DNA of 64,000 bases, from assembly GCA_026636295.1 (NCBI GenBank), contig CP089462.1, positions 248,001-312,000 on the forward strand, written 5' to 3'. The position numbers and the translations under genes are program-made. Each line of letters opens with the position of its first letter. Position 1 is the stretch's first letter. Below, piece after piece: positions 1 to 63,400 of this stretch. This stretch comes from Medakamo hakoo. Taxonomy: Eukaryota > Chlorophyta > Trebouxiophyceae > Coccomyxaceae. The notes beneath the pieces are model-generated. The model was not told the origin of the DNA, did no database searches, and saw nothing but the letters and a program-made list of their open reading frames with translations.

Positions 1-1353
1 GCGGACAGGACAAAGTTGACGCCCACGTTCACCCGCTCCTCCAAGAACGCGGCGACCCGGCCTTCCGTGTCGATGCGCCCGCGCAGCCGGCACTGGCGCA
101 GCAGGTAATCGTACCCGAACGAGGCCGTCGCCTCACGCGCCTGCCAGTTCCACAGGAAGTCGGAGGCCAAAGACACCTTGTCGGAGACGCGGTGGACGTA
201 GCCCAGCGACACCAGCCCCGTCGTCGCGACCTGGGCCGTCGCGACGTGGTTGGTGCCCGCGTGCCGGGCCGCAAAGCCCGTCCCGGACTTGCCTTGCGCC
301 CGCAGCCAGAAGGCTTCGCCGCCCAGGGTCAGGTTGGGCGTGACGGACTGGAAGTAGTTGAGACCTGGAGGGGTGGGGCAGGGGACGGGAGCGGGTGAGC
401 AAAAAAACACAACCAGCCTCGCGAGCGAGGCGGGGGGGTTGCGCGCGCCTGGAGAAGGCTCCGCCCACCCCACCCTTACCGTAAAACTGGTTGTTGCCCA
501 GCTTGACCTGGCCGTTCCAGTCCGTGCCCTTGAAGTCGACGTCCACCATGCCCTGCGACATGCCCGGCTCCGGGCTCATCTGGGTCTGGACCTTCAACGA
601 CACGGCGTCGGACAGGTCGACTTTCACCCGGCCCGTCATCCGCCCGTCCGTGAGGACGCGGCCCACGGCCATGTCGCCGCGCGCGCTGACCAGGTTGGCG
701 CCGAATTCATAGGTGCCGACCGCCATCTTCAGGGGCGGTGCGCCGGGCTGGGCGGGGACGTCCGCGTTGCCCATGAAAAAGGAGTGGCAGACCGCGAAGT
801 TTTGGTTGAAGGGCTTGGTGAAGTCGAAGCGCAGGCCTTCAAACAGGTCGGGCTTGAGGGACACTGTCATGGGTGTGGGGCGGGAGTTGGGTGACGGCGG
901 GCGTGAGTGCGAGCCTGGAGAGGGGCAGGGGAGCGCGGGCCGGGGCGGGGGTCGCCCGAAGAGAGATCGCCCGAAAGCCAAAACGCAACTCATGACTTCG
1001 CGCTGCAGTTCCTCGTAGCGGACGGGCTGCGGCAGGGCCGGCAGCGACGAGCCGGTCGCGACGGGCGCCTGATGGGGTTGGTGACGTGGGTGGGAAGGAG
1101 CGTGAGAGAGAGGCCGGGCGACGGGCAGACCGGCGTTGCCGACCGACCGACGACGACAAGCAGCACAAAAGACACAGCGAGGCGATGCCCACCCGTTTCC
1201 TGTGGCCCACCCTCCACTCACCGGCGTCGAGTACAGGCCCGCGTTCTGAGCCAGCACATTGCCCGACGGGCCCGCGGACGCGGCGGCGGGCGCTTCCGCC
1301 GTGGCGACGGCCGCGGCGGCCGAGCATTCGGCCGTGCGGAAGAGGCTGTACAT
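1..1353 (-). CDS. TOM40: TOM40, mitochondrial outer-membrane import pore (3' end beyond window)
   Basis: This is the beta-barrel channel of the TOM complex, through which nuclear-encoded precursors enter mitochondria. Four exons join cleanly on the minus strand: 1353-1222, 1068-990, 863-480 and 364 to the window edge, all with GT-AG borders. The join at the second intron gives EVMMSLKPDLFEG, matching the plant TOM40 signature. Further family signatures are YEELQREV, LRFDFTK, VDVDFKGTDW, YVHRVSDKVSLASDF and FGYDYLLRQCRLRGRID. The protein opens with an Ala/Ser-rich stretch of about 45 residues that is poorly conserved in the family. About 319 residues are visible and the frame is still open at base 1, just after NVGVNFVLSA, so only the last strand or so is missing. 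VDAC is the alternative barrel, but the listed motifs are those of TOM40. Confidence 0.93.
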
Positions 1354-1652
1354 CTCTTTTTTATCGGTCTAGCGCCTCTGAGTGCGGCGGGAGGGGGAGC
1401 CGCGGGCGTGTGCGAGCGCGGCAGACGTGCGCGATCGGTCTCAGCGGGTGGAGGAGGGGTGGGGCGTGCGGGGAGGGTGCCCGGTCGGACGGCAAGAGTC
1501 TGCCGCGTTTGCGCGCCGCTGTTTTTTTCGTTCGCGGCAGTGGGGGCACCCCTCTCCCATAAAACATGAAGAGGCCTTTCACGCCCCTGCCCATGGTTGC
1601 ACCTCTTAAACATCTGACCTTTCTTTCTTGTCTTACACACAACTCACCTTAT

Positions 1653-4511
1653 TCACGACCGCCCGGCCTCCCAGGGCCGCGGCGGGCACCGCGACCCGAT
1701 GCCGGGCAGGCGGCCGCCAGGTCCACCACTCCCACCGGCGCCGCCGACCCGCTGGAAGCCGGGGCGCCCCGCGCCCGCCGCGTTCAACGCCGCGGCCGCC
1801 GCACTCCCGTCCGCCGCCGCCACGAGCGACGCCACAAACTTCGCAGCGGCGGGCGAGGGCGGGGACGGCGCGGACCGGCCCGGCTCCACCAGCCACAGCG
1901 TGCGCGTCAGGCGGCGGCCGCGCGAGAGCGGGACGACCGAGACGAGGCCGAGCGCGACCTCCTTGTCCACCGCGGCGGCGGAGACGAAGGCGGCGCCCAG
2001 GCCGGCCGCCACCGCGCCCTTGATGGCTTCCACACTGGAAAACTCCAGCTCCACGCGCAGGCGGGCGGGCAGGATGCCCGCGTCGCGGAGGAGGGCGTCC
2101 TGCGCGGCGCGCGTGGACGACCCCGGGTGCAGCGCGACAAAGGGCGTGCCGTACAGGGCTTCCGCGTCGATGGTGGTGGAGGGGTGGGCGGCGCCGTTGC
2201 GCTGGCCGGCGCCGTGCTCGCCGCCGTCCGCGCTGCCACCACCGCCGTCTTCACAGCAGCCGCACCCGGCGGCGCCACTGCCACCCCCCGCCAGGGTGTG
2301 GCCCACCGGCACGATGAGCACGACCTCGTCCGTCGCAAAGGGGCGGGCCGCCACCGCGCCGGACGCGACGAGGTCGCCGGGCACGCCGCCGCCCACGAGC
2401 GCCACGTCCAGGTCGCCCGCCGCCACCGCCGCGCAGATGGGCCGGGAGCCGTCGACGTCCAGGCGGACGGCCACGCGGGGGTGGGCGCGGCGGAAGCCGG
2501 CCAGCAGGCGCGGCAGGACGTACGTGCCGACGGTCTGGGACGCGCCCAGGCGCAGGGCGCCGGCCATGGCGGACGCCAGGTCGGCCAGGGCGTTGGAGGC
2601 CTCGCGCGCGGCCGCCAGCGTGCGTTCGCAGTGCGGCAGCAGGGCCGCGCCCGCGTCCGAGAGGGTGGTCGGCCCGCCGCGGCGGCGGGGCGTGATGAGC
2701 GGGCCGCACCCGCCCAGGGCCGCCTCCAGCGCGGCCAGCGCCTTGGACACGGCCGGCTGGGAGATGCCGAGGACCGTGCCGGCGGCCGCGCCGGACCCCG
2801 TGCGCGCCATGGCCTGCAACGCGGCCAGCTGGGCGAGCGTGAAGGGCGGCGGCTCGGTCAGCGCGCGGCCCGGGCCGGTCGGCGGGGACGCGCCGGCGCC
2901 CCCCGCGTCAGCCGCCCGCCCGGAGCCCAGCTCGCCAGGGGGCGGCGCCCGGCCGGCGAGGTGCGGGTACGGCGAGCCAACGCCGGCAGCGGCGGCCGCG
3001 GCGGCGGCCGCCGCCGCCGCAGCGGACGAGTCGCAGGAGCGGGCGGGCGGGCCGGCCGCGCCACCCCAACCCCCACCCCCACCGCCGCACTCGTGCGCAC
3101 AAAACTCGCGCGCCGCCCGCGGCAGGTGGCGGCCCGGGTCCGTGACCAGCCACAGCGTGCGACTCAGCTCCGCGCCCTCCACACGCAGCGCCACGAGCGT
3201 GCCGAGGGCGACCTCCTTCTCCACGGCGGCGGCCGAGACAAAGGCCGCGCCCAGGCCGGCCTCGACCGCCGCTTTGATGGCTTCCACCGAGTTCACTTCC
3301 AGGACGACGGCCAGGGCGCGCCAGTCCACGCCGGCCTCAGCCAGGCGCGCACGCACGCCTTGCACCGTCGACGACTTGTGCAGGGAGACGTAGGCCAACG
3401 ACGTCAGGGCGCCGACGGGGATGGCGCCGGACGACGCGAATTCCAGGGCGGCCGGGTGCTGCGGCGGGAGGGCGACGACGACCTCGTCCTGGGCGAAAGG
3501 ACGCACGGACAGCAAGTGCTCCAGCTCCGCCGGAATCGCGCCACCCACCACCGCCGCGTCGGCCTCACCGCGCGCGACGGCCTGGCAACAGCGGCGCGTG
3601 TTTTCCACCTGGAGCGAGACGTCGACGCCCGGCCACCGCGCCTTGAAAGACGCGATGAGGCGGGGCAGGGCGTACACGCCCGTCGTCTGGGAGGCCGCCA
3701 GGAAGACGGACCCCGTCCGCAGGGCGCCCGCATCCCGGGCCGCCGCCGCCGCGTCGGCGGCCAGGGTCAGGATGCGCTCCGCGTACCGGTCCAGCAGCGC
3801 GCCGGCGGGCGTGAGGTGGACGCGCGCGGCGGGCGCCGACCGGGTGGATGCCGCCGCCGCCGCCGCCGCCGCCGCCGCTGACGACGACGACGGCGAGGCT
3901 CTGGACGCCGCCGCCGGCGCGTCCAGGAAGACCTCTCCCTCTCCGTCGCGCAGCAGGCTCATGCCGCCCAGGTCCCGCTCCAGCTTCGCGAGGCCCGCCG
4001 CCACAGCGGCGGGCGTGCGGCCGGTCGCGGCGGCGGCCGCGTCCAGGCTGCCCTCCGCCGCGACGGCCCGGAACAGCGCCAGTTGAGCGAGCGTGAAAGG
4101 GAAGGAGGAAGAGAGGTCCGTCGAGTCAGCGGCCGGCGGCGCCTCGGCCGGCACGTCGATCGCGTCGGCGGGCGGGCTCATGGGCGAGGAGGAGACGCGC
4201 GCCGGGCCGCGCGCCACCTCGGCGGGCGGGGCGGCCGCGGTGGCGGCGGCCGCGGCGGCGGCTAGGGCTGCCACGCTGGGCGGGATCGTGACGGGGGATG
4301 TGGACCGCCGTCCTTGGCCGGGCGGGGTGCGGCGGCGGCCGGACAAGGGCCGGCCGGGCTGGGCACGGGTCAAGGCGCGGCCGCGGGCAGGGGCAGGTGT
4401 GACGAGGGCGGGCGGCGTGCGCCGCGGCGCGAGTCCGCAGCGCCCTGCCTCCATGCCGCCATGGGAGGGTCCCGCCGAGCTGCCAGACATGGTCCGCATT
4501 GCCACAGGCAT
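1653..4511 (-). CDS. Double LysR-type transcriptional regulator, RbcR/CbbR-like, probably plastid-targeted
   Basis: This intronless gene codes for about 952 residues holding two complete LysR-type regulators in series. Each has an N-terminal winged helix (residues about 139-190 and 553-610) followed by an effector-binding domain opening with SQTTGVYALPRLI or SQTVGTYVLPRLL. The second helix-turn-helix (GISQPAVSKALAALE) is canonical. The first (GRTPAAVAAGLAKLE) is degenerate and its wing carries a Ser/Ala-rich insertion. Both effector domains share SVEAIK..V.AGLGAAFVSAAAV.KEVALG, seen in RbcR (Ycf30) and CbbR regulators of Rubisco genes. The first in-frame ATG is at 4511; the roughly 130 residues after it are rich in Arg, Ser, Ala and Pro, as in a plastid transit peptide. 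Family assignment is secure. The RbcR role and plastid location are inferences. The next gene, primase, diverges from it 744 bp away. Confidence 0.82.
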   Translation of the reverse strand: MPVAMRTMSGSSAGPSHGGMEAGRCGLAPRRTPPALVTPAPARGRALTRAQPGRPLSGRRRTPPGQGRRSTSPVTIPPSVAALAAAAAAATAAAPPAEVARGPARVSSSPMSPPADAIDVPAEAPPAADSTDLSSSFPFTLAQLALFRAVAAEGSLDAAAAATGRTPAAVAAGLAKLERDLGGMSLLRDGEGEVFLDAPAAASRASPSSSSAAAAAAAAAASTRSAPAARVHLTPAGALLDRYAERILTLAADAAAAARDAGALRTGSVFLAASQTTGVYALPRLIASFKARWPGVDVSLQVENTRRCCQAVARGEADAAVVGGAIPAELEHLLSVRPFAQDEVVVALPPQHPAALEFASSGAIPVGALTSLAYVSLHKSSTVQGVRARLAEAGVDWRALAVVLEVNSVEAIKAAVEAGLGAAFVSAAAVEKEVALGTLVALRVEGAELSRTLWLVTDPGRHLPRAAREFCAHECGGGGGGWGGAAGPPARSCDSSAAAAAAAAAAAAAGVGSPYPHLAGRAPPPGELGSGRAADAGGAGASPPTGPGRALTEPPPFTLAQLAALQAMARTGSGAAAGTVLGISQPAVSKALAALEAALGGCGPLITPRRRGGPTTLSDAGAALLPHCERTLAAAREASNALADLASAMAGALRLGASQTVGTYVLPRLLAGFRRAHPRVAVRLDVDGSRPICAAVAAGDLDVALVGGGVPGDLVASGAVAARPFATDEVVLIVPVGHTLAGGGSGAAGCGCCEDGGGGSADGGEHGAGQRNGAAHPSTTIDAEALYGTPFVALHPGSSTRAAQDALLRDAGILPARLRVELEFSSVEAIKGAVAAGLGAAFVSAAAVDKEVALGLVSVVPLSRGRRLTRTLWLVEPGRSAPSPPSPAAAKFVASLVAAADGSAAAAALNAAGAGRPGFQRVGGAGGSGGPGGRLPGIGSRCPPRPWEAGRS

Positions 4512-5255: not shown

Positions 5256-7361
5256 ATGTCCGCCGTCCCGGGGGGCAGCGGCTCGCCAGGTGCGGGCGTA
5301 AATTGCGCTCTACCGCCGTTTGCAGACCCGTCTACCGCTGCTACACCGCGCAAGAGACGGGAGGCGGAAGCCTGGTGTGGGCGCGCGACCCGCTTTTCCT
5401 CCCAACTCCGCCGCCCGATTCAAACAGCCTCAATTCCTTTCCTCCGTCCTTTTCCCACACCCATCCCACAGCTCCCAAGCGGCCCAAGCCCGCGGCGCCC
5501 AAGGCCGAGCCCATGGATACAGGTGCGCGCGTGCGTGGGTGTGGGAGGGCTCCTTGCGTGTGCGATGCCGCACGCCGCCGTGGAGAACGGTTTCGCTCTA
5601 TGCAGCGCGATGCGTCTTCCAGTGCCTGGCCGCACGCCGCCGCCAGCGTGTACCACCTCTGCCAGCCTGCAGCGCGCATGCAGACGTACGTTGCAGGCCA
5701 TACGCAAACATGTGGCGTCCTCAATCCCTATCCCTCTTCCCCCTCGTCAAACACACAACAGACGCGGCCGCGACCACCGCGCCCAAGCAACCATCCTCGG
5801 CCGGTCCACGCACGCACGACCTCATGCCCGCCTACTACCGCCAGTTCTTCCCCTTCGACGAGTTCATGGCCTGGCTGGCGTACGGTAACGGTGAGTCGTG
5901 GAGGGAAGCCTACTTCGGCGCCGCCCTCCCGTGTCGTTTCCGCCCATCTCAACTCTCTCACCCATCCATAAAAAAACAAGACTCCAAACACCCGCGGGCC
6001 GACGCCACCTTCACCCAACGCCGCGAGCTGTGCTTTACCTTGGACGGCGACATCTTCGTGCGCTACCTGTCGTTCAAGGTATGATGGGTGGGTGCGGGTG
6101 GGTGGGCTGCCTTGTGTCCGACCGACTGTCCGCGACCGCCCCACCCTTCTCACCCTCTCCCCGTCCACCCACCTCTCCCCATCAGGACGCCGCCGCCTTG
6201 CGCCGCGCCGTCCTGGCCCGCGTCCCCGCGAAAATCGACATCGGGCCCGTGTACACCGTTGACCCAGCCCGCCGGGCCGCGTACGCCGGCACGTCTGGCG
6301 CGTCCGCCGCGGGCGCGACTGGTTTTGCGCCCGTCGAACGCGAGCTCGTTTTCGACGTCGACTTGACAGACTACGACGACGTGCGCACGTGCGGGTCCGG
6401 CGGACACATCTGCGACCGGTGCTGGCCCTTCATGTCCGCGGCCGTGGCTGTCCTGGACGCGGCGCTGGACGAAGACTTTGGCTTTGCCCACCGCCTGTGG
6501 GTCTTCTCGGGCCGGCGCGGCGTGCACTGCTGGGTCGGCGACGCCCGCGCCCGGGCGCTGACGGACGAGGCGCGCTCGTCCGTCGCCTCCTACCTGTCCA
6601 TCTACAAAGGCGTGGAGGAGGGCGTCGCCCGGCTGGCCCTCCCGCCCCCGGGCTCGTCCGCGCCGCTCCACCCGTCGGTCGAACGGGCGGCGCGCCTGCT
6701 GACCGACATCTGGACGGCCGCCCTCCTGCCCGCCCAGCGCTGGCTGGACGGCCCGGCCACCTGGGACAGGGTCCTGGCCCACATCCCGGACGAAGGCCTC
6801 AAAGCCCGGCTGGCGGCCCGGTGGACCAAGGAAGGCCCGATCGCGGCCGACAACGACGGCTCCGTCTCCGTGCGCCGGTGGGGCGAGCTGGAGGCGGAGG
6901 TGTCGAAGGAGTCCCGGCCCGCTGCGTCCGACGCCAAGAACCCGGCGGCCCGCGACCGGAAGGCCGCCCTGGCGCGCGGCCCGCTCCGCGCCATCCTGGC
7001 GTGCGCGTACCCCCGCCTGGACGTGGACGTCTCCAAAAAGCGCAACCACCTGCTGAAAGCGCCCTTTTGCGTGCACCCGAAGACCGGCAAGGTGTGCGTG
7101 CCGTTTGACGCGGCGGCGGCGGCCGACTTCGACCCGGACGGCGTGCCGACGGTCGGCCAACTGCTGGCGGAGAAGCGGGGTGGTGGTGGGCGCCGGGCGG
7201 CGGGCGGAGACGCGGCCCAGCCGGGCTGGGTCGGTTCCGCGTTGGAGCCGGCCATCCGCTTCTTCGCCGACAGCTTCTTGGCGCCGCTGGCCATTGCTTC
7301 GAAGGCCGAGCTGGCGGCGAAAGCGAAAGAAGCGGCGGCCGCGCCGACGATGGCGTGGTGA
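5256..7361 (+). CDS. PRIM1: DNA primase small (catalytic) subunit
   Basis: The catalytic subunit of the DNA polymerase alpha-primase complex makes the RNA primers for nuclear replication. Five exons (5256-5289, 5472-5522, 5762-5890, 5981-6078, 6186-7361) give 495 residues. The first exon codes for only 11 residues plus one base. Archaeo-eukaryotic primase signatures are all present: TFTQRRELCFTL and DIFVRYLSF near residues 85-104, KIDIGPVY, the catalytic pair Asp161/Asp163 in FDVDLTDYDD, the zinc-binding cysteines of RTCGSGGHICDRCWPF, and SGRRGVHCWVGD at 212-223, which binds the incoming nucleotide. A third motif follows in SKKRNHLLKAPFCVHPKTG. The N-terminal PAPKRPKPAAPK resembles a nuclear localisation signal. 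Length is slightly above the usual 400-450 residues because of that tail and a C-terminal extension. Confidence 0.95.
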
Positions 7362-7558: not shown

Positions 7559-8903
7559 ATGCCCACCATTTCGCAGCGCCCTGCCCCGCTGCGCGTGTCG
7601 CCGACCAATGTGCTCATCGTCCCGCCCTTTGAGTGCGCGTGGCTGGCGGACCCGTGCCTGCAGCTGGCCGAGGGCGCGGGCTGCGTGTCCCTGGAGGTCA
7701 GAGGTGTGTGTGGCGGGAGGTGGCGGGAGGGGAGGTGGAGGCGTGGGGGCGTGGCGGAAAGAGAGAGAGGCGCGGCACAGGGGTGGGCCACCCCCCCGCC
7801 ACGCCCGGTCAACCCACACGCCCACACTCACACACACGCCGCGACTCGTTTTTTTCCACACAGCCACCAACGACGTCACGCTCCTATTCAAAGCCAAGCC
7901 GGGCTCCCGCCGGTGGCAGCACCACGAACTCAGGGACGGCGGCGGCGAGCCGGCGGGCGGCGGCGTGGTCGGCTCCCCGCCTGGCGCTGCGGCCGGTCCG
8001 CCGTCGCCGACGCCCACCTCGCCTCCGTCCGCGCCGCCCGCCCCGCCGGAAGCCGACTACACGCTCATCCTGGGCTCGCACCGCAACTCCTGCCTGAAGG
8101 TGGAGCGCAACGGCGTGCCCATGGCGAGGGTGAGTGTTTTTTGGTGTGGGGTGTGCGGGTGCGGGCGCGTTGCCGCCCCCCTGTCCCCATCCCACGCTTC
8201 CCCCCCATCATCTCCCCCTCTTCCACCCTTTTTTCAGTTTGACGGCGTGCCCGGCGCCCGGCTGACGCCCGACCGGTTCATGCGCGTCTGGGTCGACTTC
8301 AACGCGGGCGCGATCACCGTGGGGGCCGGCCCGCCCGGGTGCGGGCCGTGCACGCGGTGGGTGGACCCGGACGCGCCGTGCGCCGGGCGGGTGGGCGTCG
8401 GCGGCGGGCCTGGCAAGCCTGGGCCGCCGCCGTCCGCCGGCCCGACCGCGTCCGTGCGCCACATCGGCCTGTCCGCCTGGGACGCCGCCGTCGCGTACCG
8501 GGCCATCGCCGTGGGGCCGCCCGTCGACTTTTCCGTGCCCAGGCCTGGGACGGGCGCGGCCGCGTCTGCGCTGGCCACGCCGCCCGCGGCCGGCCCGCCG
8601 CCGCTCGTGGCGCTGGCTGCCGCCGCTGCGGCGGCGGGTCCGGGCGCGCCGCACGCCACGCCCGCCCTGGCCGAAGTCTGCCGCCTGGCGCCGGCCCTGG
8701 ACGCGCTGCGGCCCGGGCTGACGGCGGCGTTGGCTGCTGCTGGCCCGTCCGCGCCGCTCGCCTGCCCGGCCGCCCTCGCCGCGTTGCCCGCCGACGCGGT
8801 CGCCGAACTCCTGGCCCACCCCGCTTTGGTCGCGGCGGACGAGGCGGATGTGTACGCCCTCGTCCTGGCCTGGGCGGGTGTGCCTCCCGCCGTGGGCGGG
8901 CTG

Positions 8904-8934
<31 letters not shown>

Positions 8935-9968
8935 GTGCGCAGTCCACCCCCTCCCTCCCCTCCCCGCGCGCCGACCCGGCCGCCGCCGCGTGCGCGGCCG
9001 CTTCCGCGCCCGCCCGGCCCATGTCGGACTTGGATGCGCTGCTCCCGCTCGTCCGGTTCCCGCTGGTGGACGCGGCCACGCTGCGGGGCGTGTTGGCCTC
9101 GCCGCTCGCGGCCGCGAGCGCCGCGCTTGGGCCGCTGGTGCGGGAGGCCCTCGCGTCCCACGCCGCGGCCGGCCTGGCCCGCGCCTCGCCCAGCGGGCCC
9201 GTCACCATCATCGGCTCGCCGCCGGGTGCGGGCCTGGTCTGGCCCGGCGCGCCGCCGGCGGCGCCGACGCCCCTGTCTCCGACCGCCCCGCCCCCGCTCA
9301 CCCTGGCCGGCCCGCGCGGCGTCGCCGCCGCGTCCGGCGCCGCCGCCCTGGCCGCCGCCCGCCACGCCGCCCGCCTGCCGCCGGGCGGTGTGGAGCTGCT
9401 TCACATGCGGGACGGCGACGCCAACGGCCTGCTGCACTGGCTGGGGACGGCCGGCGGGGCGCGGCCGTGGGTGAACCCCGTCCTGGCTGGGTCGCTAGCC
9501 ATCACCGCCTCCTCCCCGCCCTGCCGCACGACCGATCCCAAGGCCCTGGCCGCCGGCACGACGGTGGCGTGCAATGCGGCCGGCCCCGACCGGGCGGGCG
9601 GCGGCGGCGCGTGGTGGGCGCTGGACCTGGGGCCCGGCGCCCGCCTGGCGGTGACGGGCTACACGCTGCGCGCCGACGGGTCGGGCGCGTACCCCCGGTC
9701 CTGGACGCTGCAGGCGGCGGCCGGGCCGGCGGCCGACCCGGGCGCGGGCTGGCATGACCTGGCCGTCCACGTGGACGACGCCGCCCTGCACCTGCCGGGC
9801 CAGTACGCGTCGTGGCCGGTGGCGGGCCCGCGCGCGGCCGCGCCGTGGCGCAGCTTTCGGCTGTTGCTGACGGGGCCGAACGCCGCCGCCGCCACGGGCG
9901 CGCGGGGTGGGGACGCCTTTGCGCTGGCGGGCGTGGAGCTGTACGGCCACTTTTGGCCCGGGACGTAG
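7559..9968 (+). CDS. FA-methyltransferase-like / BACK / F5-8C (discoidin-like) domain protein
   Basis: Three exons (7559-7703, 7864-8129, 8238-9968) give 713 residues. Residues about 45-220 resemble the Methyltransf_FA domain: YTLILGSHRNS, FMRVWVDFNAGAITVG and VRHIGLSAWD. Despite its name this domain usually has no shown methyltransferase activity. Residues about 290-460 look like a BACK domain, the helical region normally found after a BTB domain in Cullin-3 adaptors (ADEADVYALVLAW, LLPLVRFPLVDAATL). The C-terminal part (about 535-710) matches the F5/8C-like domain found in BTB proteins: GLLHWLGTAGG, PWVNP, WWALDLGPG, SFRLLLTGPN and FALAGVELYGHFW. No BTB domain is visible, which is unusual for a BACK protein. 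A role as a substrate-recognition scaffold is plausible but not shown by the sequence. Confidence 0.72.
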
Positions 9969-38387: not shown

Positions 38388-39236
38388 ATGACCGACCCGC
38401 TGGCCACGCCGGGTGGTGTGCGCTCCCGACCGACAGCCGTGGAAAGCCTGGCGGCGTCCGCCGAGGCGGCCGCCGCCACGGCCGCTGCTGCCACGCCGCC
38501 GCCGCCGCCCACCAACGAAGGGGCGACCGCCTCCAACCACGACCCTTCCCGCCGCCGCCGCCGCCCCTCCTCCGTCGGCAGCCAGGAGACTGACAGCGAA
38601 GACGGATCCAGGAGGCCGCCACCCTTGCCGCCGCCGCCACACCAAGCCAAGCCCAAGAAGAAGAAACTGTGCAGCGGGCCCAGCGGGCGGCGCACGTCGG
38701 GCGCGGGCGGCAGTGGTGGTGGTGGCGGCGCCCGCCCCCGCTCCAGCGGCCCAGCGGCCACGGCGGACGTCGTGGCGGAGGCTGCACCGCCGACCGTGGC
38801 AGCAGAGCCAGTGGCGGCAGCTGCACCACCGGCCGTGGCAGCAGCGCCAGTGGCGCCTGCCGTGGCCGCTCCGTTCCGAGCGGCGGCAGGCGCCTGCCCC
38901 CCGCCCATGGTGCCCACGCCCCGCGGCCTGGCCTCGCCCGAGGCCCTCGCGCCCCTGCCGCTGCCGCCCGCTGACGCCGCAGAGGCTGGCAGAGCATCTG
39001 TGCCACCCTTCTACGCCTCCCCGCCCCTGCCACTGGCGCCAGTCGACCCGTGCGCGTCGGCCGCCCACCCGACCTCGCCGCCCGTCTCACCGCTGACTGC
39101 CTTGCTGGGCGGACCACCGGCCGCCATCGACGGCGGCGGCGGGCACGTCCACCGCGGCCTGCACCCGCGCCTGTGGCTGCTGCCTGCCCCACCAGGCGGC
39201 GACCACCGCCGCGGCAGTGGGCGGCAGGACGGGTGA
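38388..39236 (+). CDS. Low-complexity protein with basic nuclear-type signal, unknown function
   Basis: An open frame of 282 residues from ATG 38388 to TGA 39236, with no intron recognised. I do not recognise the family. Composition is dominated by Ala and Pro. The first 90 residues are the most protein-like: a basic block SRRRRRPSSVGSQETDSEDG mixes Arg, Ser and acidic residues, and KPKKKKL near residue 88 resembles a monopartite nuclear localisation signal. Imperfect Ala/Pro repeats follow (VAEAAPPTVAAEPVAAAAPP and similar). No transmembrane segment or signal peptide is seen. Long open frames also exist on the opposite strand because of the base composition, so its reality is uncertain. Confidence 0.35.
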   Translation: MTDPLATPGGVRSRPTAVESLAASAEAAAATAAAATPPPPPTNEGATASNHDPSRRRRRPSSVGSQETDSEDGSRRPPPLPPPPHQAKPKKKKLCSGPSGRRTSGAGGSGGGGGARPRSSGPAATADVVAEAAPPTVAAEPVAAAAPPAVAAAPVAPAVAAPFRAAAGACPPPMVPTPRGLASPEALAPLPLPPADAAEAGRASVPPFYASPPLPLAPVDPCASAAHPTSPPVSPLTALLGGPPAAIDGGGGHVHRGLHPRLWLLPAPPGGDHRRGSGRQDG

Positions 39237-60476: not shown

Positions 60477-63400
60477 ATGGACCGGTACGGCGACGGCGCC
60501 GGCACCAGCGCCGCCGGCGGCGCGCCGCCAATGGCAACGGCCACGCAGCAGCAGCAGCAGGGCGCGCGCCGCTCCCGCCCGCGCCCGCTGTCCATTGGCG
60601 ACGTGGCCGCCGCCGCCGCCGCCGCCCCCGGTCCACTGACAGCGGGCGACGGAGGCGGCGCGCCGGCTTGCGCGCCCGCCGCCGCCCCACCGGCCGACGA
60701 CGACGCGGTCGTGCTCGCGTCGCCTGCGCCGTGGGCTGGCGGCGCCGCGGCCGCTGCACCGCCTCCATCCCTCCTGCACCGCGGCCCGTCCCTCGCCCTG
60801 CCCAGCCCAGCTCCCGCGTGCACGCCCTCCCTGGCGGGCGTGCCGCGGCGATTCAGGTGGTGCGTTTTTTTGGGGGGAAATGGGGGGGGCGGGCTTTCAG
60901 TCGCGGCGCGCGCGCGCACGCGCCCCCGCATGCCCCTCAACCACTCTCTCCCTCCACAACGACTCGCGAACGATACAGGCCGGCCCGCGCCGACCCGCCC
61001 GACGGCCCGGCTGTGCCTCCTCCCGGAGTGGGTGACGGCCCATCGCCCTCTCCAGTCCGCCATGCCGGGCGCGCTGCCTCCTCGCCCCCGTCCTCGGACA
61101 ACGACGATGGCGACGACGACCGGTGCGGGCCGCTGCCCGACCTGACACCACCGCCCGTCGCGGGCGGCGCTGGGGGAGGCCCGCCCCCGCTGCCGCCGGT
61201 GCGGGACCGCCCGCGCGCCTCGTCCGTCGCGCCCGAACTGCTGACAGGCCAGCCGGCCGCCGCTGCCGGCGCCTCGCCCTCCAAGCGGGCTGCGGCGCCC
61301 CCGCCCGCGGCCGCGCCGCCGCCGCGCGCCCGCCCCGCGCTCTTCATGTCGACCGACCACGCCCTCCGCCGCCACTTGGCGGCGGCGGCGGCGGCGGCAG
61401 GCGGTGGGCCTGGCGGGAGGGGAGGCGCGGGCGCTGCTGCCGCGGCGGCCGCGACGGCGGGCCCCGCCGGGCGCTTGCTCCTGGGCGTGGGCGCGCCGGG
61501 CGCGCCGCCCCCGCCGCCGCCCCCGCCGCCCGCGCGCGCCGCGCTCGCCGCCCCCCTCCCCCTGACCCGCGAAATCGAGGCCCGCATCCAGTCGCTCGGC
61601 ACCGAGCTGCCCGCCACCCACAAAGCCGTGCTCTGGGTGGGCGTCATCCTGGACGTCGCGTCCAAGGCGTCCATGTGCGCCCAGCTCTACCGGTTCGCGG
61701 CTGACTCGGCCTGGTACAGTTTTGCCGCGCTGGCCGCGTTCGCGTCCGCCTCCTCCGCCGCCGTGACGGGCTACTGGCTGTCGCACTACCCCAACGCGCT
61801 GGCGGAGCGGGCGCTGCTGCGCAAGCGCGCGGCGGCGGCTGCCGCGGCCGTGGCGGCGGCGGCCGCGGCGGCGAGCGCGGCCGCGGCGTCGTCCGGGCCA
61901 GACGCGTCGCCGCCGCCGCCGCCCCCGCCGCCGCCGCCGCGTGCCTCGCCGCCCCCGCCGCCGCCGCCGCGTGCCTCGCCGCCCCAGCCGCTGCGCGCCC
62001 TGCTGGCGGGCGGCGGCGCCGCCCGGTCCCCGCGCCGGCCTGGGGCGGCCGACTCCACGCGGTCGTCCCGCAATTCGTCCTCCGCCGCCTCGTCCGGCCT
62101 GGCCAAAGCCCGGCGCCAGGCGTGGGTGCGCCGCCTGGGCACGCTCGCCGCCGCGGCCCAGCTGGGCACCGCCTTCGCCGCCGCCCGCGCCCTGCGCGCG
62201 TCCGAAGTGCGCCAGCGCCTGGTCGCCATGGACCTGCGCGGCATGCGCCTGGCCGACACCGTGTTCCTGACCCTGGGCGTCGCGGCCCTGAACGCCTACG
62301 TGACCGTGCGGTGCGGCGGCGCGGCCGCCGCGCTCGCGGGCGGCGGCGCGCCCGACGCGGACGTCGAGGCCGTCGCCGGCGCCCTGGCCGGCTGCGCGCC
62401 CGGCAGTGGGCGGGCGCTCCTGCGCCTGGCGTCCACGGGCGGCGCCCTCATCTCCGCGGCGCTGTGCCACCTGGCCCTGGAAATGAACGACCGCCGCCTG
62501 GCCGCGGGCGACCGGCAGCACGCGCTCCAGGTGCGTGTGTGTGTGTGTGTGTGGAGGCACCCCAGGCAGGGGGAGGGAGGTAGGGGGCCCTTGTTTTTGT
62601 GCTCACGCCGCCCCCACCCTCCTTCCCCACCCACCCACCAGCTCACCGCGCTCTTCGTCTACCGCGTCATGGAATCCGGCGCCCGCATCGCGGCCCTGGC
62701 CGTCTTCGCGTCCGTCGCGGGCGCCTGGCTGTTTGGCGTGCTCGCAGGCCACGCGGCCGCCGTGGTCACTCTCCTCGCCCTGCAGCAGCGCCGCCCGCGG
62801 GGGGGCGTGCACCGGCGTGGGAGGGGCCGGAGGGCGGCGGCGGCGACCGCGCCCGCTCCGCCCGCCCCACCCCGCCCCTGGCGCAAAGTTTTCCGGGTCG
62901 TGGCCATCCCCCTGCCGGCCCGCCTGGGCTGGCTGGGCTGCGTGCGTGGCAGCGGCGGCGGCGGGAGCGGGAGCGGGCCGGCCAGCGCCGCCCTGACGCG
63001 CGTGCCCACGGCGACGGTCACCCTGACCGCCAGCCCGGGCAAAGCGTCGCCTCCCATCCCGGCCCGCCGCCCGCACGGCAGGGTGGCCCGCCTGCGGGCG
63101 CACCTGCCGGGGCGGAGTGGCGGCGGCGGCGACGGGGGGGAGGTGGACGACGCGCGCCCACCCTCGCCGCCGCCCTCCCCACCACCCGCCACGCCGCCGC
63201 CGCCGGTCCCGCCTCCGCGGTCGCCGCGCGCCATTCCCATCGCCCTGCCGCGCTCCACGGACGCCGCCCTCCTGGCCGCCTGCCTGGCGTGGCCGCCGTC
63301 GTTTTATGTTTCCGACGCGACCGACAGGTCTGGCGCCTTTTGGTGGCGGGCGCGCATGTTGGGGCGCAAGTCCTGCGCGTCCGTCGCGCCCGGCGCGGCC

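What the first reader, a model, noticed from the sequence alone, without database searches (positions are those of the whole stretch)
1653..4511. Two complete LysR regulators fused in one nuclear, probably plastid-targeted protein
LysR regulators act as dimers or tetramers of single units. Here two full units (HTH plus effector domain each) sit in one intronless gene after a transit-peptide-like leader. The first HTH is degenerate with a low-complexity insertion in its wing, while the second is intact. This could be a built-in dimer where one arm binds DNA and both bind ligand. RbcR is plastid-encoded in red-lineage algae, so a nuclear fused form would be an informative gene-transfer case.
Basis: partly seen in the sequence, partly recalled or inferred. 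Interest (0 to 1): 0.72.

Follow-up and report, generated by a model that had tools for sequence, protein, structure and literature searches.

The report
Nuclear tandem LysR regulator in alga
A tiny green alga carries, in its nucleus, one gene that joins two copies of a bacterial-type gene switch that looks related to the one controlling carbon fixation in cyanobacteria, a switch that most green plastids are thought to have lost.

Summary
Window 1653-4511 (minus strand) is one intronless frame of 952 aa with two LysR units, each a winged HTH plus effector domain. The second unit has no ATG before its HTH. The contig has exactly the length of the largest published Medakamo hakoo contig, and eukaryotic genes flank the frame. 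No other LysR locus was found in the 16 contigs held. The halves are 41% identical over their aligned stretch and group together. No authentic RbcR or Ycf30 could be fetched, so this is a strong lead, not proof. The first HTH has lost the recognition motif, the second keeps it. A transit peptide is plausible but not established: the frame upstream of the ATG is equally basic and acid-poor. Best reading: a nuclear tandem RbcR acting as a built-in LysR pair, probably in the plastid, with DNA contact mainly through the second HTH. Pairing, location, expression and targets are untested. New variant of a known kind.

The parts
1653..4511 (-). whole gene, 952 aa, no intron needed to read it
4221..4511 (-). 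N-terminal leader aa 1-97: 1% acidic, 13% Arg, 16.5% Ser/Thr, rich in Ala and Pro; possible transit peptide, coding status weak
   Evidence: upstream frame: 2% acidic, 15.8% basic, 8.9% Ser/Thr; z 1.8 against 0.7 upstream
3963..4091 (-). HTH of unit A (aa 141-183); SQP-type turn/recognition motif reads TPA
   Evidence: three helices at pLDDT about 72-82
3828..3926 (-). low-complexity Ala/Ser insert in the wing of HTH A (aa 196-228)
3096..3719 (-). effector domain of unit A (aa 265-472)
2847..3095 (-). 83-aa Gly/Ala/Pro-rich linker between the units; no Met from aa 185 to 567
2649..2837 (-). HTH of unit B (aa 559-621), SQPAVS motif kept
1818..2564 (-). effector domain of unit B, in two Pfam stretches
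2181..2288 (-). 36-aa low-complexity insert inside effector domain B (aa 742-777)
   Evidence: alignment; cut out of the copy used for the trees
3..1353 (-). neighbour downstream: eukaryotic porin (Porin_3), its two parts in two different frames, hence at least one intron
5898..7361 (+). neighbour upstream, divergent: DNA primase small subunit; by eye its N-terminal part lies in other frames from about 5256

Best explanation
The gene encodes a nucleus-encoded RbcR-type LysR regulator that was duplicated in tandem and fused, so that one chain carries both partners of a LysR pair. Shown: two LysR units in one nuclear frame, halves related to each other, an effector-domain match nearly end to end in each unit, the SQP recognition motif kept only in HTH B. 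Supported but resting on a recalled reference: descent from the cyanobacterial/plastid RbcR line. Inferred: import into the plastid; the two effector domains pair within the chain and sense a carbon-metabolism ligand; unit B supplies the sequence-specific DNA contact while HTH A is mainly a partner for pairing; two such chains would make the tetramer usual for LysR regulators (general knowledge); targets are plastid genes such as rbcL or others with bacterial-type promoters.
For: Domains. Half A against half B: 109 of 264 identical, E 3e-38. A+B clade at 99/92, with RbcR at 100/98, in a tree of 47 rows. Each half alone joins RbcR (SH-aLRT 98 and 97, quick method, 27 rows each). Bit scores: A to recalled RbcR 219, B to recalled RbcR 204, B to A 173, best other row 155 for A and 146 for B. 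Closest solved chain by sequence is 5y2v, labelled Rubisco operon transcriptional regulator (E 4.4e-18), with 8sbf close behind (9.6e-18); 5y2v also ranks first by fold. No Met between aa 184 and 568. In CmpR, RuBP binds at the interface of two effector domains (review PMC13249358, passages), which would make a fused pair functionally sensible.
Against: The leader cannot be told from non-coding GC-rich sequence. Both Medakamo rows have long branches and biased composition. A+B as sisters is favoured only narrowly over A+RbcR (AU p 0.056) or B+RbcR (p 0.042). B keeps fewer of the conserved HTH columns than A (14 against 17 of 32), which does not fit a simple 'A dead, B intact' picture. The structure models are poor: mean pLDDT 51 and 39, with 3-row alignments. 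No expression, localisation or DNA-binding data.
Confidence: 0.5

Rival explanations
1. The fused RbcR-type protein starts at a later ATG (aa 111) or is not imported, and works in the nucleus or cytosol.
For: The leader is no more basic and hardly poorer in acidic residues than the untranslated frame upstream; codon signal is weak for aa 1-97 (z 1.8) but present for aa 98-132 (z 3.5).
Against: The first ATG has A at position -3 and the ATG at aa 111 has C (read); Ser/Thr are 16.5% in the leader against 8.9% upstream; the RbcR and Ycf30 named in the passages read are cyanobacterial or plastid-encoded.
Confidence: 0.2
2. The gene came by horizontal transfer from a non-cyanobacterial bacterium and was then duplicated and fused.
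For: LysR genes abound in bacteria; 45 of 299 Pseudomonadota genomes match the two-half profile at E 1e-20 or better.
Against: The best of the 44 other rows scores 155 bits to A against 219 for the recalled RbcR; a group with NdhR/CbbR is rejected (p 0.009), with the caveat that the recalled RbcR sits in that data set.
Confidence: 0.13
3. The protein is imported into the plastid but governs another regulon, for example plastid cysA/cysT, whose upstream motif in Trebouxiophyceae and other greens has no known factor.
For: PMC3773388 (passages) gives the motif TAAWATGATT, a consensus built from 9 species, and an unidentified factor.
Against: No binding data; the authors lean to a repressor and do not identify its family; the Medakamo plastid genome was not available here.
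Confidence: 0.12
4. The two units are not one protein: two transcripts or a frame-changing splice separate them.
For: The linker has a weak codon signal (z 2.8) and no RNA evidence was seen.
Against: No stop, no Met from aa 185 to 567, and a start at Met568 would cut into HTH B; an in-frame intron would still leave a fusion.
Confidence: 0.05

Closest known systems
Cyanobacterial RbcR (sll0998 type)
   Same: nearest row for each half on its own; shares with both halves some departures from the majority residue of the 44 other rows, such as G for E and L for R at two columns
   Different: single unit, chromosomal, no leader; the reference sequence here is recalled
Plastid Ycf30/RbcR of red-lineage algae, glaucophytes and Chlorokybus
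   Same: presumed orthologue by the RbcR affinity; the title of a reference in PMC9833100 states control of the Rubisco operon in a red alga (passages)
   Different: plastid-encoded single unit; PMC1781420 (2007, passages) found rbcR in Chlorokybus and in no other green chloroplast examined to that date
NdhR/CcmR and CmpR of cyanobacteria
   Same: LysR proteins; NdhR (5y2v) is the closest solved structure
   Different: the tree places NdhR with a CbbR and a Thiodictyon row, apart from both halves; CmpR was not in the tree
LysR of Nannochloropsis gaditana
   Same: a LysR gene counted among cyanobacterial-type factors said to be nuclear in that alga (PMC4827209, passages)
   Different: not compared here; no fusion mentioned in the passages read; the same table counts none in Chlamydomonas reinhardtii

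Membership tests
LysR-type transcriptional regulators | N-terminal winged HTH of the HTH_1 family followed by a LysR_substrate domain | tested here: met
   both units above the curated cut-offs of both models
LysR-type transcriptional regulators | works as dimer or tetramer of units | not testable with these tools
   fused model pTM 0.29
RbcR/Ycf30 | phylogenetic place with RbcR, apart from CbbR and NdhR | tested here: inconclusive
RbcR/Ycf30 | one HTH-effector unit per polypeptide | tested here: not met
   two units in one frame
RbcR/Ycf30 | control of Rubisco genes | not testable with these tools
   by PMC9871001 the 16 contigs held are the non-organellar ones; no binding data
Bacterial CbbR | groups with Rubisco-linked CbbR | tested here: not met
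   CbbR beside rbcL (L047) groups with NdhR, not with the halves
Plastid-imported proteins | cleavable transit peptide | tested here: inconclusive
   basic, acid-poor leader, but upstream frame alike; no predictor was run

The most novel reading that the evidence does not exclude
A core chlorophyte has moved RbcR to the nucleus and turned it into a single-chain, asymmetric LysR pair that is imported into the plastid: one unit binds DNA, both sense metabolites, so that the nucleus sends a bacterial-type, ligand-gated transcription switch to the plastid genome of a lineage thought to lack one.
Probability: 0.35. Interest if true: 0.8.

Novelty: new variant of a known kind. Interest (0 to 1): 0.6.

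Why it matters
Passages of a 2007 paper (PMC1781420) report that plastid rbcR and ycf27 were known in no green chloroplast but that of Chlorokybus, and passages of a 2009 review (PMC2677595) say the chloroplast response regulators of green algae and plants remained unidentified. A nuclear RbcR in a trebouxiophyte would be a direct candidate for metabolite control of plastid transcription. A natural single-chain LysR pair with one altered HTH would also allow a clean test of which subunits of a LysR oligomer must bind DNA and which must bind ligand.

Tried and rejected
Contamination: rejected. A eukaryotic porin gene with its parts in two frames lies on one side and a DNA primase small subunit on the other, and the contig has the length of the largest published contig. 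The sequence itself was not compared with the published one.

Chance frame: rejected; the 4 shadow frames scanned carry no domain and the codon signal is in frame.

A second LysR elsewhere in the 16 contigs held: none found (only the best candidates are scored by that tool).

Search for relatives: genome contigs gave 1 distant Burkholderiales hit. Six viral-contig scans gave no relative.

Rows dropped: the tree used all 47 rows; searches used 28 (27 in each leave-one-out run), after I dropped 4 long-branch rows (L006, L007, L049, L050) and 15 of the 30 Pseudomonadota rows, mostly near-duplicates.

Are fused LysR pairs common in bacteria? In one search the 47 listed matches lie in frames of 298-399 aa. 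In one search the rows listed for 60 Pseudomonadota genomes (150 by my count by eye; more matches were not listed) include two frames over 502 aa (665 and 678 aa); read through, each shows one LysR unit by eye; the others are too short for two full units.

Structure: the models are too weak to judge the effector domains or the pairing of the halves.

Papers: ten searches. In the titles and abstract starts listed and the passages read I saw no report of a nuclear LysR gene in a green alga or of a tandem LysR fusion. No paper was read whole.

Full report
What is there. The window's minus strand holds one frame from ATG 4511 to the stop at 1653, 952 aa. Pfam finds two LysR units in it. Unit A: HTH at aa 141-183 (33.8 bits; model positions 1-43 of 60), effector at aa 265-472. 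Unit B: HTH at aa 559-621 (42.0 bits in the half scanned apart; positions 1-59), effector from about aa 650 in two stretches, broken by a 36-aa low-complexity insert at aa 742-777. An 83-aa linker rich in Gly, Ala and Pro joins them.

Is it more than chance? In this genome of about 73% GC (PMC9871001, passages) long open frames are cheap: frames of 771 and 564 aa lie on the other strand. But none of the 4 shadow frames scanned has a Pfam match. A codon model trained on the effector domains and the two neighbour genes gives z 5.7 for HTH A, 6.9 for HTH B and 12.5 and 13.8 for the effector domains, each effector domain being left out of its own training set. It gives 2.8 for the linker, 3.5 for aa 98-132, 1.8 for aa 1-97 and 0.7 for the 303 bases upstream of the ATG.

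Where it is. The contig is 1,473,234 bases long, equal to the maximum contig of Medakamo hakoo in PMC9871001 (passages), which also reports 16 non-organellar contigs and 72.7% GC. The species name is inferred from this match. Downstream lies a porin gene whose two parts are in different frames; upstream and divergent lies the DNA primase small subunit. By eye, a starch synthase-like frame lies further downstream. The gene is nuclear and not a contaminant.

One protein or two? Met occurs at aa 1, 5, 8, 20, 111, 184, 568 and 649. There is no Met between aa 184 and 568, and a start at 568 would remove the beginning of HTH B. There is no stop. An in-frame intron in the linker cannot be excluded without RNA, but would leave a fusion.

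How the halves relate. BLASTP aligns A and B over 264 positions with 109 identities (E 3e-38). The strongest block is the stretch around SVEAIK...GLGAAFVS, with 26 of 30 identical. In the turn and recognition region (17 columns) A and the recalled RbcR share 4, B and the recalled RbcR share 9. Over 32 conserved HTH columns A keeps 17, B 14 and the recalled RbcR 22 (inserts cut out beforehand), so the picture of one dead and one perfect HTH is too simple: A has lost the recognition motif and has a long insert in its wing; B keeps the motif and has an unusual wing. Half A's HTH is modelled as three helices at pLDDT about 72-82 in a model that is otherwise weak (mean 51).

Which LysR group? I could not fetch any authentic RbcR or Ycf30. 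The 47-row tree puts A and B together (99/92) and both with RbcR (100/98). In a reduced set, leaving out B, A joins RbcR (98); leaving out A, B joins RbcR (97); leaving out RbcR, A and B stay together (99) (quick method). A careful tree of that 28-row set gives the same (98/94 and 100/98). AU tests on it reject a group of the halves with NdhR, a Thiodictyon row and a Rubisco-linked CbbR (p 0.009), and only marginally separate A+B from A+RbcR (p 0.056) or B+RbcR (p 0.042). The groups were named after one search had been seen, and the first of them leaves the recalled RbcR outside, so these p-values are guides only. Long branches and biased composition are flagged by the program. No RbcR model is among the NCBIfam families listed; the best family for both halves and for the recalled RbcR is LysR_Sec_metab, below its cut-off in each single half. 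Over the whole two-unit protein that model passes its cut-off (279 against 250 bits), a sum over two units and not a membership.

Fold. The model of half A matches LysR proteins in the 50 rows shown (by title, or by recall for OxyR, CysB, BenM, CbnR and ArgP), first the cyanobacterial NdhR/CcmR 5y2v (E 6e-12), with low TM-scores (at most 0.30) because the model is poor. The model of the fused region (pTM 0.29) says nothing about pairing.

Mechanism. Shown: two LysR units in one nuclear frame, effector-domain matches in both, recognition motif kept in B only. Inferred: the chain is a built-in pair; B contacts DNA; the pair senses a metabolite. A review (PMC13249358, passages) states that in CmpR RuBP binds at the interface of two effector domains, and that RbcR activates Rubisco and carbon-concentrating genes at low carbon. 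Plastid import is plausible from the likely origin and from a basic, acid-poor leader, but the frame upstream of the ATG is just as basic and acid-poor, though poorer in Ser/Thr, so the leader is weak evidence.

What is known. PMC1781420 (passages) lists plastid rbcR in Cyanophora, red algae, red-derived plastids and, among greens examined by 2007, Chlorokybus. PMC9833100 (passages) describes Ycf30 as plastid-encoded in algae with Form ID Rubisco. PMC4827209 (passages) counts one LysR in Nannochloropsis gaditana, said to be nuclear, and none in Chlamydomonas. PMC3773388 (passages) reports a plastid motif upstream of cysA/cysT in Trebouxiophyceae and other greens with no known factor. No fused LysR pair was seen among the rows listed for 60 Pseudomonadota genomes or the 47 matches. 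So a nuclear LysR in an alga has one reported precedent; a nuclear RbcR-like gene in a chlorophyte and a tandem LysR fusion were not found in the ten searches made.

Verdict. A real and unusual gene: a new variant of the LysR/RbcR kind. Its membership in RbcR proper is inconclusive and the single-unit criterion is not met, though it most likely works like an RbcR pair.

Noticed in passing
1566-3881 and 1699-3393 (+): Open frames of 771 and 564 aa on the opposite strand of the LysR gene, without any Pfam match; probably a by-product of high GC.
   Followed up: yes
2181-2288 (-): Gly-rich, Cys-bearing 36-aa insert inside effector domain B, almost wholly absent at that place from the other 30 rows of the alignment.
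   Followed up: partly
L012-L014 and relatives: A LysR family in part of the Pseudomonadota sample: 24 of 30 fetched rows form one tight clade, and it holds the best authentic match to each half. In L012-L014, of 5 loci whose frames were printed, a nearby frame looks by eye like cytidylate kinase.
   Followed up: no
L052 2260-5613 (-) (C1:242260-245613): By eye, a starch synthase-like frame with a very long low-complexity stretch in its middle.
   Followed up: no
7608-9968 (+): Long open frame of 786 aa next to the primase gene with only a sub-threshold Pfam match (Methyltransf_FA).
   Followed up: no
38772-38855 and 61917-61999: The two tandem repeat arrays at score 120 or more in the window (periods 39 and 30); no tRNA gene found.
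   Followed up: no
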